A stretch of DNA of 64,000 bases, taken from Chitinispirillum alkaliphilum. GTDB taxonomy: Bacteria; Fibrobacterota; Chitinivibrionia; Chitinivibrionales; Chitinispirillaceae. Of this stretch, positions 1 through 60,113 are shown piece after piece. The stretch covers positions 1 through 64,000 of the forward strand of contig LDWW01000001.1 of NCBI GenBank assembly GCA_001045525.1, written 5' to 3'. The notes beneath the pieces are model-generated. The model did no database searches. It was given only the letters and a program-made list of their open reading frames with translations, and was not told where the DNA came from. A program made the translations under genes and the position numbers. Numbering within the stretch: the stretch's first letter is position 1; each line of letters opens with the position of its first letter.

Positions 1-736
1 GTACAGCACGGGGGCACGCTTTAGGTAAGCGATATTGTAGCCCTTTAGAGTGAAAGATCATATGTAAAACCTTAGCTAATGTTAAGTGTGTAGTTTAAAA
101 CACAAAAGAAGGGTTTTGCCAAAACATACCGCCCGGGTAAACCGCGCAAGGGGGGACGGAAGGTGGCGCTTTCTTAAGTGTCAGTGCCCTCCCAGAAGCG
201 GAGTCTTCGAAGCGCTATAAACGTGGCACCGAGGAGGAATCCCGATTTCAATCGGGAAGCCTGTAGGAGAACCGGTGCCGTCTTCGACATGCGCCCAAAT
301 CATTTTAACTCTTCCTCTTACTCTATACAAAACAGAAAATCAATCAGAATTATTTGGATGGGAAAAGCCTTTCCCTCGCTGCAGCTCCCTCTTCGGAGGA
401 CCTCATCGGGATATTCCGCTACCCTTTCAATGCGGTCGTACATCACGGGGGCAAATTGAAACAATGTGGCGATTCCTCTAATGACTGGTGAATTTTGTTG
501 TAAAGGGGCCTTAGGAACGGTCGGGGCAGAAATCAGGAAAAAGAGAGGAACGTTAAGTGTTTGATACAGATAACTGGTGTCTGCGTCCACAAACATCCAA
601 AGTTAAATCCTGCTGACAAACAAGGCTCCCCAGGTTGTATCTTTTAGCATTGGGAATAAAAAGCAGGTACTTTGTATGTGTGTTATGCTGGTGTGAGACA
701 GAATATTATTCCAATAAGGATAGGGAGATAAACCAT
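1..736. other. Leader region without a protein gene
   Basis: No reading frame here looks like a real protein: the frames are short, overlap one another on both strands and lack ribosome binding sites. The left part, 115-282, is an element that recurs at 59883-60041 and is listed separately. The part from about 300 to 700 shows no recognisable gene, tRNA or terminator. The ribosome binding site of the next gene lies just before 737. Confidence 0.6.
115..282 (-). ncRNA. HEARO / IscB omega-RNA-like element, copy A
   Basis: Read on the minus strand, this stretch shares ordered conserved blocks with 59883-60041. The block at 259-282 matches 59883-59906 at 21 of 24 bases, and the block at 157-180 matches the region ending at 60003 at 19 of 24, with every difference a transition. 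Further matches are CGAAGAC (203-209) and a GTTTAC-type block (137-143). A stem GGCACCG/CGGTGCC encloses an inner ATTCCCGATT hairpin, which argues for a folded RNA. The order ACAGGCT, CACCT, GTTTAC recalls from memory the HEARO RNA that accompanies IscB nucleases. No IscB reading frame is visible in the 110 bases left of it, where one would start. Strand and identity are inferred. Confidence 0.45.
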
Positions 737-3969: not shown

Positions 3970-6402
3970 TCACTTTTCAGATTTGCTATGCCTCTTAATA
4001 TTTCTCCTGTAGCCCGATTTCGCCTTTTGGGCCAGTAACAACAGTGCGGTTAGTGGTCCAAGGAGTGCTGCCATCGCGCCCAGGCCAATATTGCCGGAAA
4101 GCTGAAACCCGAAATTGTCATCGAAAGGGTTGTCGTTAACCAGATAGGTCCAGGTGGCACCAGCTGATTTTTTATGGAATGGTATTCCTTTCTCCTTATT
4201 CTCAGATACCAGTTTCAGAACCTCCTGGGCAGTTGCGGTATCGACACTTTGAAGCATAGCATGAAACATCTCCAAGGTAAGTTTTCTGAATTCAAAAAGC
4301 GGGTCTTGAGATCCATACCGCCTTAGATGGATAAAATCCTGAATATCTCTGATCTCTTCAAGAAAAACAGACCATGCCTTGTCGAGATGATACAGATACA
4401 GTTCTCGTATTGGTTTATCGCATTTGTCGCTTAGCCAGGTGCTAAAATTATCATTTCCCCTAAACAGCTCATGGTCTCTGCACATTTTTAGGGCATACGG
4501 GGTATTAAGTACCTCGTCTCTATGTTTTTTGATAATGTTTCGCTGCTGTTCGAGGAGTACAGAATACTTGTACAGTGTAAGCTTTATTTCAAGGTTCTGA
4601 CCCTCAATGATTCGTTGTACCCTGTCAATTTCTTCCCATAATTCTCTACAGGAGTTCATTTCTTCTTCAGAGTCGGGAATCCCAAAAGGTAGCAGCTCAT
4701 CAAGTTTGTATTTGACAAAAAGTTCATCTTCCAGGCTGATGAAAAATTTGGAACACCCATGATCCCCCTGCCTTCCAGCTCTTCCCCGAAGCTGCTTATC
4801 TATTCTGCTGCTTTCGTGGCGGTTTGTTCCTATCACCAGAAGCCCTCCCAGAGCCGCCACCTCATCTCGCTCCCGGTTATCAGAACCGCCCAGCCGTATA
4901 TCGGTTCCTCTTCCTGCCATATTGGTAGATATGGTAACAGCTCCTCTCCGTCCTGCCTGTGAGATAATTGAAGCCTCTCTGGAGTCATCTCTGGCATTCA
5001 GTACTTCACAAACAATTCCCCGTTTTCTTAATTCAGTTGCAAACTCCTCAGATTCAGTAATGGAGCTGGTCCCCACAAGAACCGGTCTCCCAGTGGAATG
5101 TACATCTGAAATCTCTTTGAGAAGAGCTGCGTTCTTCTCTTGCTTTGTTCTATACAGCGTATCGGGTTGGTCCAGTCGAATACAGGGTCGATGGGGTGGA
5201 ATAACTACAATGTGGAGCCCGAAAACGAGACGTAACTCCTCCTGAGCCTGTTCAGCTGTAGCAGTCATACCGCTTTTAGCCGGGTGCAGATTTATAAAAT
5301 GTTGCAGTGTGATGGAATTAAGGATGACTCCTCCCGGCATGACTGTGCACCCCTCCTTGGCTTCTACTGCAGCCTGCAGACCGTCAGGCCAACGCCTTCG
5401 ATCGGCAGTCCTTCCCGTGAACTCATCAACCAACACTACTCTGTCACTCTTTACTATATAATCTCTGTCGCGTTGGAGCAGGTGTTGAGCATGCAGCGCA
5501 TGGTAGATTCTCGAAAGGAGTCTGCTGTTACAATTCTCGTACAGATTATCGAAGCCAAAGTGTTTCTCTATCTGCTCTGTACCTTTTTCTGTCAAGGTGC
5601 AATTGCGGCTATACTGGTCAAAATCAAAATCCACTCCCGCTTGTAACTTCTTTACCGCATCGGCGGCTTCAACACACCCCTGTGCCTGCTCTTGAGCATC
5701 ACCAGCAATTACAAGCGGTGTTCGCGCTTCATCAATGAGAATAGAATCAGCTTCATCCACGATGGCAAAAGGAAAACCTCTTCGCACACAATCTTCAGGA
5801 GTGTACACCAGTCCATCTCTCAGGAAGTCAAAACCCGATTCACGAGCTGTTAAATAGGTGATATCTTTATTATAAGCCGACCTGCGCTCTTCGCAACTCA
5901 TCCCCTGATTGATATATCCTACTTTTTTCCCCAGAAAATCAAAAACAGGTCCCATCCACAGAGCGTCTCTGCGTGCCAGATAATCGTTGAAGGTAAAAAT
6001 ATGCACACCATTTTTGGCCAGAGACTGAAAATAGGCAGCGAATACAGCTGTTAACGTCTTACCCTCACCAGTCTGCATCTGGGCGATTTTTCCCTCATTT
6101 AGAACCAGTCCTCCCACAATCTGTTCATCAAAGGGTACAATTCCCAGAACCCTCCTGATTGTTTCTTTCACCAAAGCAAAGGCCCTGATCTCCATAGATT
6201 CTTTAGTCTCCTGCCCGGAAAATTTACTGGTTAAATCCTGAGACATACTTTTAAGATCTCTGTCGCTTAGGGCTGATAGTTTTTCAGACTCACTGTTTAT
6301 CTGCTTTACTTTTCTTATATAATCAGAAATTGTATGAGTTACAGTATTTCCGTTTAGACGATTTACCAATCTATTTACATGTTTAACAATACGTGATTTC
6401 AT
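3970..6402 (-). CDS. SecA-like preprotein translocase ATPase (SecA2-type paralogue)
   Basis: This 810-residue protein keeps the SecA motor: Walker A MQTGEGKT (109-116), FNDYLARRDA, DEAD box (216-219) followed by SILIDEARTPL, GMTATA, NMAGRGTDI and QLRGRAGRQGD. SecA drives unfolded proteins through SecYEG. Several motifs deviate from the housekeeping form (GMTATA for GMTGTA). The C-terminus lacks the Cys-rich zinc tail and instead has a 20-residue hydrophobic segment (about 772-791) followed by a Lys/Arg-rich end, suggesting a membrane-anchored accessory SecA. Start 6402 is set by a strong AGGAGT 4 bases upstream; a longer in-frame ORF has no such site. A small secreted protein gene lies directly upstream on the same strand. 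Confidence 0.88.
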   Translation of the reverse strand: MKSRIVKHVNRLVNRLNGNTVTHTISDYIRKVKQINSESEKLSALSDRDLKSMSQDLTSKFSGQETKESMEIRAFALVKETIRRVLGIVPFDEQIVGGLVLNEGKIAQMQTGEGKTLTAVFAAYFQSLAKNGVHIFTFNDYLARRDALWMGPVFDFLGKKVGYINQGMSCEERRSAYNKDITYLTARESGFDFLRDGLVYTPEDCVRRGFPFAIVDEADSILIDEARTPLVIAGDAQEQAQGCVEAADAVKKLQAGVDFDFDQYSRNCTLTEKGTEQIEKHFGFDNLYENCNSRLLSRIYHALHAQHLLQRDRDYIVKSDRVVLVDEFTGRTADRRRWPDGLQAAVEAKEGCTVMPGGVILNSITLQHFINLHPAKSGMTATAEQAQEELRLVFGLHIVVIPPHRPCIRLDQPDTLYRTKQEKNAALLKEISDVHSTGRPVLVGTSSITESEEFATELRKRGIVCEVLNARDDSREASIISQAGRRGAVTISTNMAGRGTDIRLGGSDNRERDEVAALGGLLVIGTNRHESSRIDKQLRGRAGRQGDHGCSKFFISLEDELFVKYKLDELLPFGIPDSEEEMNSCRELWEEIDRVQRIIEGQNLEIKLTLYKYSVLLEQQRNIIKKHRDEVLNTPYALKMCRDHELFRGNDNFSTWLSDKCDKPIRELYLYHLDKAWSVFLEEIRDIQDFIHLRRYGSQDPLFEFRKLTLEMFHAMLQSVDTATAQEVLKLVSENKEKGIPFHKKSAGATWTYLVNDNPFDDNFGFQLSGNIGLGAMAALLGPLTALLLLAQKAKSGYRRNIKRHSKSEK

Positions 6403-7946: not shown

Positions 7947-9707
7947 TCACCCGTCAAAAGATAAATTCACCAATATATCTTCACCCCATAGAGGATATGG
8001 TACATTCGCCTTAACCGTAACATTGTGCATACCTCCACTCACTTGCGTAACTAAAACTTCTGCAATCTGCCCAGCCGGTGTTACTTGAATCTTACGGCAC
8101 ATTAGTTTTGCCAGTGATGCTGTGATAAGCGCTTCCAGTTCGTTGCAGGGAAGAGCCTTATGGTTTTCGATGATACCGGCGCTTATACGGTAAATGTGTC
8201 CTGCCATAAGAAGTGATGGGATCGGGTAATTACTATTTCCATACGTCTTAGTTCCGTCAAGTTCGATAGAGAGTGTGCCGGGTGTGCAGTTGACAGGGGT
8301 CAACCCTGAATCGCTCATATCCCACACCTGATCGCCCGATAGAGAATTAACACTGGTTTGGGTTTTGCCGGAGTTAAGATCTGTATAGCAATGTAATGCA
8401 GAAATTTCACTCAGTTTTGCTTTGTGCTGGAATTGCATTATGTTTTCGGTACCCAGTTCTGCTGCAAGCTCTGTCACCATTGATACAATAACCGAAGATG
8501 CGGATCCACAGGGCATGAGCTGGGGTTGGTGATTTTCCCTGAAGTTAAACCCCTTTACAGAAATACCATCGGGACCATACGATGAACGCAGGTAAAAGCT
8601 GTTGGCAGCAATTATCAACCAGTCTGCTTCTTCTTTGTTTCGCAGTTCCCGCCAAGTCTCATACCCGCATCCGTTCAATGTTGACTGAATGCTTGGAACT
8701 GAAGTCCTTAGAGAATAATAATGGGGTGCACCGAAAAAAGCGGCATCGGCACTTAAAAGCATAAGTGTTTGGGTGGAGGCTGCTGCCTGCGCCAGATTGA
8801 GAGCCATTTTGTGATCGGGTGCACTACGATCGAAGGGATGAAGAGAGGCAACGAGATCCGGAGCTGTTTTGCCTTCATACCATATAGGTTTAAAAACTGT
8901 TTCAAGAAGGGTTGTGTCAAGAGCCTGCTTTTCGCAGGTAATGACTTCAATGGTGATGTTCGCTCGGAAATCGGTTCTGTCAACAATGAATTTCAGCTCT
9001 CGCCATGCGGTTTCAAGTTTCAGAAAATCCGGGTGATGGAGAACTTCATTTATTTGCATTTCTAAAATGGCATCTACTGCATCAATAATTGTCTGTACCT
9101 GATTGCCTGAACCCGGTCTTTGCGGCTGTGTTTTGGTTTCTGAGCCTGAGACCATTTTCTCTGAAGTTCCAGATCCGTTGGATAAATTGTGTGTAGGAAC
9201 AGTTGTATCCATCATTGAAAGTATTGCATCAAGGGGGTTTTGTGACTCCGGATCAGAAGTGTTGCTGTTATGGGAATGAGCGGTTTGGGTAATTTGACTT
9301 GATGGAAAATCTGGAAGAGCCGTAATCTTGTTGTAAATAGAATTGGGGAGAGGATGTCTATGAATTAATTCTGAGAGTGATTGAGGATCGATCGCTCCCT
9401 GACGATATAAACCAAGCTTGTCTCTTATTTGGAGTAACCAGGCCAATTCAGGTATCTGTGTGACCAGTGCATCTGGAGTGAAATCTTTGATTGCAGAAAA
9501 ACCAAGTGATACGTCCAGATGTTTAGCATCAGGCTGGCAGAAGTTTTTCACTGGGAAGTTCAAAGTCGGTTTTAGAGCTTCGAACAGATCTCTGAAACTG
9601 TTTTTGTCAATTGTGAATGTTTGGTTTAAACTATTACCGGGTGTGAAATTACCAGCAATTACTACACTCCACGGACTGAGCTGTTCGATAGGTGAAGTTG
9701 ATTCCAT
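7947..9707 (-). CDS. Fused TssB-TssC contractile sheath protein, orphan
   Basis: This 586-residue protein joins the two sheath subunits of type VI-like contractile systems. Residues about 15-130 resemble TssB/VipA (FRDLFEALKPTLNFPVKN, then IKDFTPDALVTQIPELAWLL). Residues about 205-586 resemble TssC/VipB, with the hallmark HHPDFLKLETAWRELKF at 224-240. A Ser/Thr/Gln/Asn-rich linker of about 70 residues connects them. In normal systems these are separate genes whose products polymerise into a tube that drives an effector spike. The TssC part is about 100 residues shorter than usual. Start 9707 has AAGGAT 6 bases upstream. No Hcp, VgrG, baseplate, TssJLM or ClpV gene is in the window. Confidence 0.75.
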   Translation of the reverse strand: MESTSPIEQLSPWSVVIAGNFTPGNSLNQTFTIDKNSFRDLFEALKPTLNFPVKNFCQPDAKHLDVSLGFSAIKDFTPDALVTQIPELAWLLQIRDKLGLYRQGAIDPQSLSELIHRHPLPNSIYNKITALPDFPSSQITQTAHSHNSNTSDPESQNPLDAILSMMDTTVPTHNLSNGSGTSEKMVSGSETKTQPQRPGSGNQVQTIIDAVDAILEMQINEVLHHPDFLKLETAWRELKFIVDRTDFRANITIEVITCEKQALDTTLLETVFKPIWYEGKTAPDLVASLHPFDRSAPDHKMALNLAQAAASTQTLMLLSADAAFFGAPHYYSLRTSVPSIQSTLNGCGYETWRELRNKEEADWLIIAANSFYLRSSYGPDGISVKGFNFRENHQPQLMPCGSASSVIVSMVTELAAELGTENIMQFQHKAKLSEISALHCYTDLNSGKTQTSVNSLSGDQVWDMSDSGLTPVNCTPGTLSIELDGTKTYGNSNYPIPSLLMAGHIYRISAGIIENHKALPCNELEALITASLAKLMCRKIQVTPAGQIAEVLVTQVSGGMHNVTVKANVPYPLWGEDILVNLSFDG

Positions 9708-10366
9708 TATGAATCCTTTTCTGGTCACTAATATTTCTGAGTTGTTGTTGTCATTGTTAATCTGTACAATATACATGTTGGAAACCTGCTTGCACCATGT
9801 AAACCTATTCCAGGCACCAAACGCGATTTTTGATTTCGTTGCCGTATAGTGATTATAAATTTATATATGGTAAATTTCAGTCTTTGTCCCTGTTACTAAA
9901 AGCACAGGGTTACTTTGATGTGTTTGTGTCTGTTGTGAAAATGGTGGACTTACTTTTTAGATATTTATTGCGCGGGCAAGTATTCAGGACTGTTATAATT
10001 CTCTTTTTTAAGAGATGGGGAGATACTTTTTAGTGCCCCTTATCTGTGTGATCTAATAGGATGAACTACTTTTCTGATCCTCCTAAAGATGAACTTCATA
10101 ATAATCCCCATTCGGATTGGTTTCTTCTATTGCTGGTGTGTTGACAGGTATTGAATTCAGAAATTACAATATTGATGATGAACCGATAGCAAGGGCATGG
10201 ATTGAATCCATTCACAGATAAATAATGGGTTATATAAAAAAGGTAGATATCAGAGTGGAAGAGGGGTTAGAGAGACTGCATTTCATCTTTGATTCTTTAA
10301 GATGAGATTATTCAGCCTCTCTGTATTCTTAATGGCAGCCTGTTGCTGTAAAAGGCTCAATTGAGC
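9708..10366. other. Intergenic region, no supported gene
   Basis: About 660 bases between two minus-strand genes. The small frames here have no ribosome binding sites or recognisable content. A short frame near 10140-10230 encodes a tail that ends SIHR and stop, and could be a relic of a decayed gene, but it is too short to assign. No clear terminator or promoter was found. Confidence 0.5.
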
Positions 10367-11893
10367 TTAGGGTATAACTATAGATCTGGATAAAACACCC
10401 CCGATATCCAAAATGTAGGCGCCACTTGCAAGGTTTTTACCGGGATTCCAGGAAATCCGCCCTGTTTCGATTGGAACCACATCATATGACACCATCCTTC
10501 CCTGAGGTGTATAGAGAGTGAGGGGGACTCTGTTGCCATTCACAACCCCTTCTCCTAAGGAAATCTGAAAGCCATTGAGTGTTATCGAAACTTCAGCTCT
10601 TTTGGAGGCTTGTGTTCTGTTACCCTCTGCAACAGAGGTGTACTCTGGCAACGGTACCGGATCGCGAACCCAGGTGATGATATCTATTGGCCTTACAATA
10701 CGAACCATCGGATAGGTGAGTGTGTATTCAAGGAAATCCTCGAACACTTTCTGCCTCTCCCGTGTGTCTGGAGCATTGGGGCATCTTTCGTCACGGTCAG
10801 AGTGAAAATATTCCGAATGTGCTCCGATCATCAGGGGTGCCCGGTTGCCCTCAAGCCTTTTGTGAAATGTAAATTTGAGGATAGCAAGAAACTCCTTGTC
10901 GCTAAGTTCTGCCTCATGCCAGATGTTGTAGTCAAACAGGGTTATTTTTCCGCTTTCAGAATTAAACCAGGGGATATTTTTGGCAATTTCGGATCTGATA
11001 CAATGTTCAATTCCGTATCGGGCAGCCTCTTCCTGGGAAGGGACCAGGGCTACGTGATTTGGGAGCTGCCATAATCCGGGAACTTTTGGTACGGTGAAAT
11101 GGTCTGAGTTATCTGGGTTGCCCCGCCAGCTTTCTGTATGCCCCGGGCTGCCATTGTCAAGTGTGTAGGGCCAGCGGAAATTGGTTCCGTCATGTTCCCG
11201 GTGATTACCTTCCTCAATGGTACAGTCATAGATTATCCCTTCCTCTTTAAGCGTCGGAAACAGAGAATCGCCATAGGCAAGAAAAGGTGTGCGGAAACCT
11301 ACTATGTCTCTGCGGGGAATACCTGAACCAAAATCACTGCTTTCAGCCTGCATCCACAAGGGCATGGTATCGGGGGCAAGAGGTTTTGTCATCCAATCCA
11401 TACAGGTTTGAATTTCGTTTCTCCATATATCAGCTGTTGCCCTGACCAGGTTTTCGCTATGGCTGTGGGTATGATTTCCAATTTCATGTCCATCCTCATA
11501 GAGCTTATTCCACATTCTTCTTATAAGTGCAGGATTATCTCCGTTGTATCCGGATGCATAATATGTTGTATTATAAAAGGCAACTCTCGCAGGTGTCCCG
11601 TCAAAGGTCGCAGGATTTCCACTGCCGGCAGGATTGGTCAATGTTCTGAAATATTCAAGAGCCCAAAGCATTCCTTCCGGGTATTCAATGACTACAGTAT
11701 CGCTTCTGGGAATTCCTGACCGGGAGTTATCATCAAAACCTATTGTGATGAACATGGGGACTTCGTCAGCTTGCAAACCACCAGGGGGGTTTTGGGACGG
11801 AGGAACATTGTCCGTGTAGTCGTAGGTATAAATCCAATCATGACTGAATCCTAAGGATACCAGTATAGCTATTACTGCCGAAATTTTTTTCAT
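10367..11893 (-). CDS. Secreted polysaccharide deacetylase with C-terminal sorting domain
   Basis: The 508-residue product has a signal peptide (MKKISAVIAILVSLGFS) and a NodB-type carbohydrate esterase 4 fold. The first motif is FITIGFDDNS, with the catalytic/metal Asp pair, and the zinc motif is EIGNHTHSHS. Such enzymes remove acetyl groups from chitin, peptidoglycan or xylan. The last 60 residues (LYTPQGRMVSYD, then ISWNPGKNLASGAYIL) resemble the FlgD-like C-terminal domain that targets proteins to type IX-like secretion, which fits an exported enzyme. Start 11893 is chosen because GGGAG lies 8 bases upstream; the ORF extends 15 bases further without a better site. Confidence 0.85.
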   Translation of the reverse strand: MKKISAVIAILVSLGFSHDWIYTYDYTDNVPPSQNPPGGLQADEVPMFITIGFDDNSRSGIPRSDTVVIEYPEGMLWALEYFRTLTNPAGSGNPATFDGTPARVAFYNTTYYASGYNGDNPALIRRMWNKLYEDGHEIGNHTHSHSENLVRATADIWRNEIQTCMDWMTKPLAPDTMPLWMQAESSDFGSGIPRRDIVGFRTPFLAYGDSLFPTLKEEGIIYDCTIEEGNHREHDGTNFRWPYTLDNGSPGHTESWRGNPDNSDHFTVPKVPGLWQLPNHVALVPSQEEAARYGIEHCIRSEIAKNIPWFNSESGKITLFDYNIWHEAELSDKEFLAILKFTFHKRLEGNRAPLMIGAHSEYFHSDRDERCPNAPDTRERQKVFEDFLEYTLTYPMVRIVRPIDIITWVRDPVPLPEYTSVAEGNRTQASKRAEVSITLNGFQISLGEGVVNGNRVPLTLYTPQGRMVSYDVVPIETGRISWNPGKNLASGAYILDIGGVLSRSIVIP

Positions 11894-59779: not shown

Positions 59780-59882
59780 GCTGCACACGGAGGTTCTCAG
59801 GTTTAAACTTAACACTTCTTAATCTTTCGGGAGACTTGATCAATACTGCACATGGTTTGACGAGCTTTGGTGAGCTGCCTAG

Positions 59883-60041
59883 GACGGCACCGATTCCCGT
59901 ACAGGCTCTCCCGCAGGATGCGCATTGGCGTCAATTTAAGGGCTGCGCGAAGACGCTCTGACCCTTTGAGGGTACTGGACGCTTAAGAAAATGTCACCTT
60001 CCAGGCAATCTGTCGCGTTTTACTCAAGCAGTTTACGCAAA
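59883..60041 (+). ncRNA. HEARO / IscB omega-RNA-like element, copy B
   Basis: This stretch repeats the minus-strand element at 115-282. Conserved blocks, in order: 59883-59906 (21 of 24 bases identical), CGAAGAC at 59948-59954, GAGGGTACTGGAC (59968-59980), the block ending at 60003 with CTTAAGAAA and TCACCTTCC, and CGCGTTTTAC at 60014-60023. Unconserved bases between the blocks keep hairpins (for example GACCC/GGGTA around TTTGA). From memory, the order ACAGGCT, TCACCT, GTTTTAC resembles omega-RNAs of IscB. No nuclease gene follows; the next frame is a FecR-type gene. If the identity holds, this is an orphan guide-RNA-like element. Confidence 0.5.
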
Positions 60042-60113
60042 CACGGCATACCCACTTATTCTGTTTTGAGTAAAAAAATCTCATTTGGAGCTTGAAACTA
60101 CATATTTTATACA

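What the first reader, a model, noticed from the sequence alone, without database searches (positions are those of the whole stretch)
59883..60041. Repeated structured element resembling an orphan IscB omega-RNA (HEARO)
Two diverged copies, here and at 115-282 on the other strand, keep ordered blocks (21 of 24 and 19 of 24 bases by direct count) separated by variable spacers that still fold. Differences in the second block are all transitions. This is the pattern of a conserved RNA, not of a coding repeat. The motif order ACAGGCT, TCACCT, GTTTTAC fits my memory of omega-RNAs, but no IscB or TnpB frame is near. A FecR promoter lies downstream of the element, so it is not that gene's leader. Stand-alone guide-like RNAs acting with a distant nuclease would be new or little described.
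Basis: partly seen in the sequence, partly recalled or inferred. Interest (0 to 1): 0.85.

Follow-up and report, generated by a model that had tools for sequence, protein, structure and literature searches.

The report
Structured end of an IS1182 transposon
The two repeats are not orphan guide RNAs of IscB but copies of a conserved, RNA-like folded segment that sits between the transposase gene and the tip of an IS1182-family jumping gene, and that survives in about 65 orphan copies in this Chitinispirillum genome.

Summary
The repeat is real and much larger than reported: at least 65 copies in this genome (almost certainly Chitinispirillum alkaliphilum ACht6-1), with relatives in seven other Chitinispirillia genomes. 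A covariance model built here finds both window copies (59866-60016 +, 83 bits; 144-298 -, 140 bits). Pairing is conserved through compensatory change: 22 of 24 pairs change on both sides, 374 cells against 106 in shuffles. So a fold is under selection.

It is not HEARO. No Rfam family matches even at E=5, and the genome shows no TnpB or IscB gene (the IscB searches had weak controls). In relative G016 the segment lies inside a complete IS1182-family insertion sequence: terminal inverted repeat, folded segment, 3' end of the convergent transposase gene, other inverted repeat. Relics with the same order occur in G000 and G025. The reported copy keeps a decayed inverted repeat 35 bases upstream and the last transposase codons with their stop just downstream. 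It is an IS1182 end relic. The other copy belongs to a secondary ~390-bp repeat unit that spread and formed tandem arrays.

What the fold does is unknown; I favour an IS-encoded structured RNA, with a DNA hairpin role as main rival. I found no description of it.

The parts
59831..59845 (+). Decayed terminal inverted repeat of the IS1182-type element (GAGACTTGATCAATA against GAGRCTGTCTCAAAA, 4 mismatches)
   Evidence: 35 nt upstream of the core; clear G000 copies of the inverted repeat lie at 33-34 nt, and the columns align. The match alone is weak (4 of 107 shuffled upstream stretches reach 4 mismatches or fewer); the spacing makes it credible.
59866..60016 (+). Structured core, window copy A (the reported finding)
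   Evidence: Covariance model R1: 83.2 bits, E=1.2e-16. This copy was one of the 17 sequences in R1, so the score is inflated; its independent BLAST matches are.
59978..59995 (+). Hairpin P4 of copy A (GACGCTT AAGA AAATGTC): 7 pairs with one C-A mismatch and one G-U, AAGA tetraloop
   Evidence: Read directly from the sequence at the position of helix 6.
60017..60055 (-). Remnant of the 3' end of the IS1182 transposase gene: ...G-Y-A-V-F-A-stop, stop codon complement TTA at 60033-60035
   Evidence: Aligned with transposase relics at G000:C2 (..G-V-N-A-V-F-T-stop) and G000:C21.
144..298 (-). Structured core, window copy B
   Evidence: Covariance model R1: 139.9 bits, E=2.8e-29; this copy was not in the training set.
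1..452 (-). Longer repeat unit around copy B, with direct repeats GTACA(G/T)CACGGGGGCA at 1-17 and 436-452; position 1 is the contig start, so the unit may be cut
   Evidence: Read directly; C2, C34, C40, C44, C65 and C69 copies match the same tail and are followed by the same start.

Best explanation
The element is the subterminal non-coding segment of a group of IS1182-family insertion sequences found in the class Chitinispirillia (Fibrobacterota). In a complete copy the order is: terminal inverted repeat (GAGRCTGTCTCAAAA), 14-24 nt spacer, a folded core of about 130-210 nt, the 3' end of the convergent transposase gene, the gene, and the second inverted repeat. Window copy A (59831-60055) is a decayed relic of such an end: inverted repeat, core and the last transposase codons. 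Copy B (144-298 -) lies in a secondary, transposase-less repeat unit derived from the core, which spread and formed tandem arrays. Shown: the fold, its covariation, its place in the IS, and the relic nature of copy A. Inferred: the fold acts as RNA, read from the tip of the IS towards the 3' end of the transposase gene, and serves the IS by controlling transposase expression or binding the transposase. I put about 0.45 on an RNA of that kind, 0.25 on a hairpin acting as DNA, and the rest on other roles. The confidence below is for the identity as an IS1182-borne segment, not for the function.
For: Covariation: 17-sequence alignment, 95.6% of cells paired, 54 double-change cells against 19 shuffled; 115 distinct sequences, 93.4% paired, 374 against 106 (0 of 500 shuffles), 22 of 24 pairs with changes on both sides, slid structures collapse. 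Complete IS in G016:C380: both inverted repeats, core at 8864-9012 +, transposase at 9031-10440 -, NCBIfam IS1182 347.5 bits over a cut-off of 270. A second copy is 88% identical over 1042 bp and a third is truncated to 345 bp. Transposase relics lie beside the core in the same convergent order in G025:C37, C33, C34 and G000:C21; at G000:C2 the core is internally deleted but the inverted repeat is kept. Copy A aligns with the G000 relics through the transposase stop codon. Inverted-repeat-like motif within 70 nt upstream in 16 of 107 copies, against 4 of 107 shuffled. A ~390-bp unit sits inside the C2 transposase relic, while the paralogous C21 relic shows the site without it. Strand: G-U or U-G cells 251 against A-C or C-A 65, which leans to the core strand, but most of this comes from two near-constant columns.
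Against: Most copies lack the inverted repeat and any transposase remnant, and no intact IS1182 transposase is left in G000, G001 or G006, so the spread of the orphan units needs another agent or an extinct one. One IS1182 relic with different inverted repeats (G011:C242) and four IS1182 elements on plasmids show no match to the model, so the core belongs to a subgroup. Single-sequence folding is not exceptional (z -0.1 for copy A, -1.4 and -1.5 for two others). Transcription was not tested. The alignment was fitted to the model, which inflates the percentage paired.
Confidence: 0.85

Rival explanations
1. The fold works as DNA: hairpins or cruciforms near the IS end are recognised by the transposase. 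IS1182-family members are known to act on palindromic targets.
For: IS1272, assigned to the IS1182 family, replaces inverted-repeat targets, and other family members target palindromes (PMC5678879). The G000 array units also carry several other palindromes.
Against: The outermost helix joins bases about 150 nt apart and encloses several hairpins, which is more typical of RNA; a near-constant G-U pair is kept on one strand. The strand test is weak.
Confidence: 0.25
2. Orphan IscB or TnpB omega-RNA (HEARO).
For: Multi-copy structured non-coding element; HEARO RNAs are also known without a neighbouring nuclease gene (from memory).
Against: No Rfam hit at gathering or E<=5; no TnpB, and no IscB found, in the genome; the core sits in an IS1182 element.
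Confidence: 0.02
3. A bridge-RNA or seekRNA-like cofactor: the IS1182 transposase uses the structured RNA to choose or hold DNA.
For: The placement, a structured non-coding segment between the recombinase gene and an IS end, parallels IS110/IS1111 (PMC11187229, PMC11208160). Three plasmid IS1182 elements also have 157-187 nt between stop codon and inverted repeat, and that of ISCfr1 folds well (z -3.2 and -2.7).
Against: IS1182 transposases are DDE enzymes with inverted repeats and need no guide. Near-identical cores in G025 sit in unrelated flanks, so no loop appears to encode the target. The non-coding segments of ISKpn6 and the Bradyrhizobium element do not fold beyond shuffles on the gene strand.
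Confidence: 0.08
4. A REP/BIME-type repeat mobilised by RAYT (Y1) transposases.
For: The genome has six Y1 transposase loci, and the arrays with palindromes and tail-to-tail copies look BIME-like.
Against: No core copy lies near any of the six Y1 loci; four of them are flanked by their own different repeats. The core is instead linked to IS1182.
Confidence: 0.05

Closest known systems
IS1182-family insertion sequences (NF033551; ISCfr1, ISKpn6, IS1272)
   Same: Transposase of the family (347.5 bits over the cut-off), terminal inverted repeats, a 3' non-coding stretch of similar length between the stop codon and the inverted repeat.
   Different: Here that stretch is a conserved fold with heavy covariation; the model does not match the four plasmid IS1182 loci tested, and I found no description of such a fold.
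IS110/IS1111 bridge RNA / seekRNA
   Same: Structured non-coding segment inside an IS, between the recombinase gene and an end.
   Different: A DDE enzyme instead of DEDD; no evidence of guide loops or of an RNA requirement.
HEARO / IscB omega-RNA (RF02033)
   Same: Transposon-linked structured RNA with many orphan copies.
   Different: No covariance match, no IscB found, different transposon family.
MITEs and BIME-type intergenic repeats
   Same: Short transposase-less repeat units, dispersed and in tandem arrays.
   Different: The units carry a multi-helix core derived from an IS1182 end and mostly lack that IS's inverted repeats.

Membership tests
HEARO / IscB omega-RNA | Match to the HEARO covariance model | tested here: not met
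   cmscan of the window at gathering thresholds: 0 matches; five loci with many copies at E<=5: no HEARO.
HEARO / IscB omega-RNA | IscB or TnpB gene nearby or in the genome | tested here: not met
   PF07282 0 matches with a working control; NF040563 0 matches, controls ring but none over the cut-off; PF14239 0 matches with a silent control. The IscB part therefore rests on weaker controls.
IS1182-family insertion sequence | IS1182-family transposase in the element carrying the core | tested here: met
   G016:C380, NF033551 347.5 bits, cut-off 270; relics beside the core in G000 and G025.
IS1182-family insertion sequence | Terminal inverted repeats at both ends | tested here: met
   AGACTGTCTCAAAA and its inverted copy bracket core and gene in G016:C380; only one, decayed, in window copy A.
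IS1182-family insertion sequence | Window copy A derives from such an IS | tested here: met
   Alignment with two G000 relics continues past the core through the transposase stop codon.
IS1182-family insertion sequence | Target palindrome replaced or duplicated | not tested
   No recent insertion with an empty site of the complete IS was found.
Conserved structured RNA | Covariation beyond controls | tested here: met
   shuffled and slid controls.
Conserved structured RNA | Transcription | not testable with these tools
   No RNA-seq is available here.
Bridge RNA / seekRNA | Loops complementary to target or donor DNA | tested here: inconclusive
   G025 copies share nearly the same core in unrelated flanks, which speaks against target-encoding loops; no systematic search was made.

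The most novel reading that the evidence does not exclude
A group of IS1182-family DDE transposons encodes its own structured RNA next to one end, and the transposase or its expression depends on it: an RNA component in a DDE insertion sequence, possibly with counterparts elsewhere in the family (ISCfr1 has a similar-length, well-folding segment at the same place).
Probability: 0.25. Interest if true: 0.8.

Novelty: new variant of a known kind. Interest (0 to 1): 0.5.

Why it matters
It replaces a guess about orphan guide RNAs with a traceable origin, and it points to a little-noticed feature: a fold maintained by compensatory change inside a classical DDE insertion sequence. RNA parts of insertion sequences are so far known mainly from IS200/IS605 and IS110/IS1111. 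If the IS1182 segment is transcribed and needed, RNA involvement would reach a family common on Klebsiella and Enterococcus plasmids. It also explains contig breaks and about 65 repeats in the Chitinispirillum type genome.

Tried and rejected
Rfam on the window and, permissively, on five loci: only chance hits. IscB and TnpB searches: none found. Link to Y1/RAYT transposases: the six loci hold no core copy and four have repeats of their own. Plasmid and phage collections: no DNA match. Pattern matches in Clostridia, Bacteroidales, Actinomycetota, Zixiibacteriota and a methanogen: weak or no match to the model and no element context; judged chance, mostly coding. Integron attC arrays were considered because of the tandem arrangement and dropped, from memory of the attC boxes: the ends do not show them and the spacers hold no cassettes. 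A reverse-strand coding repeat was rejected because insertions of 4, 13 and 23 nt shift the frame. First-pass RNAalifold on a sequence-only alignment gave a weak covariation term because the two versions of hairpin P4 were misaligned. IS1182 elements on plasmids: no match to the model.

Full report
Where the window lies. The window is the start of contig 1 of a 4,434,773-base genome in 160 contigs. A draft of 160 contigs, about 4.43 Mb, with an N50 contig of 123,925 bases is reported for Chitinispirillum alkaliphilum ACht6-1 (PMC4814513), and contig C12 here is exactly 123,925 bases, so the window almost certainly comes from that strain. The same-genus relative G001 appears to be Chitinispirillum sp. 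CSBr16_98 and G025 the Fibrobacteres bacterium fen_1185 (contig lengths and sequences).

The observation. The two blocks are real. Genome searches with the two window copies return 39 and 62 matches. After a covariance model was built, 65 copies on 30 contigs pass E<=0.01. Many lie at contig ends and on small contigs in tandem arrays of about 320-405 bp per unit, some in tail-to-tail pairs.

The fold. Alignment of 17 copies from three genera shows four helices: P1 (GCGCC/GGCGC, GCGCA/TGCGC, GCGGC/GCCGC) closing the whole element; a 5' hairpin (TGCCG/CGGCA); P2 (GGTGCCT/GGGCACT, GGTCCCT/GGGGACT, GGTATGT/GCATACT); and P4, a 7-bp hairpin whose arms differ completely between copies (GGCACTT AAGA AAGTGCC; GGACAAT AGGA ATTGTCC; GCACCTG AGTA CAGGTGC). 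Measures: 95.6% of cells paired; 54 double changes against 19 shuffled. With 115 distinct sequences from eight genomes: 93.4% paired, 374 against 106, 22 of 24 pairs with changes on both sides, and slid structures drop below 46%. In distant copies P1 becomes GCGTT/AACGC (L197, L202) and P2 becomes GTCTCG/CGAGAC (L204), read directly. The fold is therefore selected. G-U cells outnumber A-C cells 251 to 65 on the core strand; most of the excess comes from two columns, so the strand is a lean, not a result.

Not HEARO. Rfam gives nothing on the window and only unrelated chance hits at E<=5 on five loci. TnpB is absent with a working control; IscB is not found, with weaker controls.

Origin. A search of 121 relatives finds the element in eight genomes (own G000, G001, G006, G011, G016, G025, G031, G033) and in none of the other 113. 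In G016 two copies share 1042 bp at 88% identity, well beyond the core. That stretch holds the 3' part of a 469-aa transposase gene on the opposite strand, an IS1182-family enzyme (347.5 bits, cut-off 270). In G016:C380 the element is complete: AGACTGTCTCAAAA, core, transposase, TTTTGAGACAGCCTCTG. The same order is found with transposase relics in G025 (C33, C34, C37) and in G000 at C21; at G000 C2 the core is internally deleted but the inverted repeat and the transposase end remain. The core is thus a regular part of this IS subgroup. It is not in every IS1182: the G011:C242 relic has other inverted repeats (GGGGCTGGGTCATAATCC) and no core, and four plasmid IS1182 loci do not match.

Window copy A. 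Aligned with the two G000 relics, copy A continues past the core: GTTTTACTCAAGCAGTTTACGCAAACACGGCAT against GTTTTACCCAGGCAGCTTACGTAAACACGGCAT. On the minus strand this reads G-Y-A-V-F-A-stop against N-A-V-F-T-stop of the relic. Thirty-five nucleotides upstream of the core lies GAGACTTGATCAATA, four mismatches from GAGRCTGTCTCAAAA, at the spacing seen in clear copies (33-34 nt). The reported element is a decayed IS1182 end.

Window copy B and the arrays. Copy B has no such inverted repeat. It belongs to longer repeat units that carry the core plus other palindromic modules. One such unit of about 390 bp lies inside the C2 transposase relic, while the paralogous C21 relic shows the site without it, so the unit itself moved. 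No intact IS1182 transposase remains in G000. What spread the units is open.

How it may work. The place (between transposase stop and inverted repeat), the covariation and the conserved unpaired motifs (ACCGGTTCTCC, GGCTCG) favour an IS-encoded RNA that regulates or assists transposition. IS1182-family elements are also known to act on palindromic targets (PMC5678879), so a DNA hairpin role is a serious rival. Three plasmid IS1182 elements have 157-187 nt between the stop codon and an inverted repeat; that of ISCfr1 folds better than shuffles (z -3.2 and -2.7), those of ISKpn6 and the Bradyrhizobium element do not clearly. Homology of these segments is not shown.

Limits. Only open-access papers were searched, so 'undescribed' means not found there. 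The percentages paired come from an alignment fitted to the model; one search does not have that bias, but its structure was chosen on the same alignment. Copy counts depend on a fragmented assembly.

Noticed in passing
window 1-17 and 436-452: Direct repeats GTACA(G/T)CACGGGGGCA flank the unit around copy B. The adjoining GTACGACCGCATT.AA.GGGTAGC motif also follows a core copy in another genus (G006, L106), so it may be a second conserved module.
   Followed up: partly
L094 1133-1293 and 1955-2115 (G000:C34): A 154-aa Y1 (IS200/RAYT-like) transposase gene is flanked by 161-nt direct repeats 92% alike; other Y1 loci (L095, L096, L098) have different flanking repeats. Possible RAYT repeat families.
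   Followed up: partly
L061 3888-4829 (G000:C71): A Transposase_31 (YhgA/Rpn-like) gene lies next to the core arrays; its 3' part is duplicated in tandem (4611-4858 and 4942-5189, 96% alike).
   Followed up: no
G000:C2:291500-291950 (L066): A ~390-bp core-bearing unit sits inside an IS1182 transposase relic; the paralogous C21 relic shows the site without the insertion.
   Followed up: partly
L241 1072-1278 (G025:C34) and core copies in G006 and G000: Loops of the core tolerate inserted modules: 78 nt in G025, 19 nt in G006, and a 23-nt module (TTCGGCCAGGCTCACTGTAAACT) present or absent in G000 copies, as if modules are swapped between copies.
   Followed up: no
L271 1972-2128 (ISCfr1 on an E. 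coli plasmid): The segment between the IS1182 transposase stop and the inverted repeat folds better than shuffles (z -3.2 and -2.7 on the two strands), with an outer stem enclosing hairpins.
   Followed up: partly
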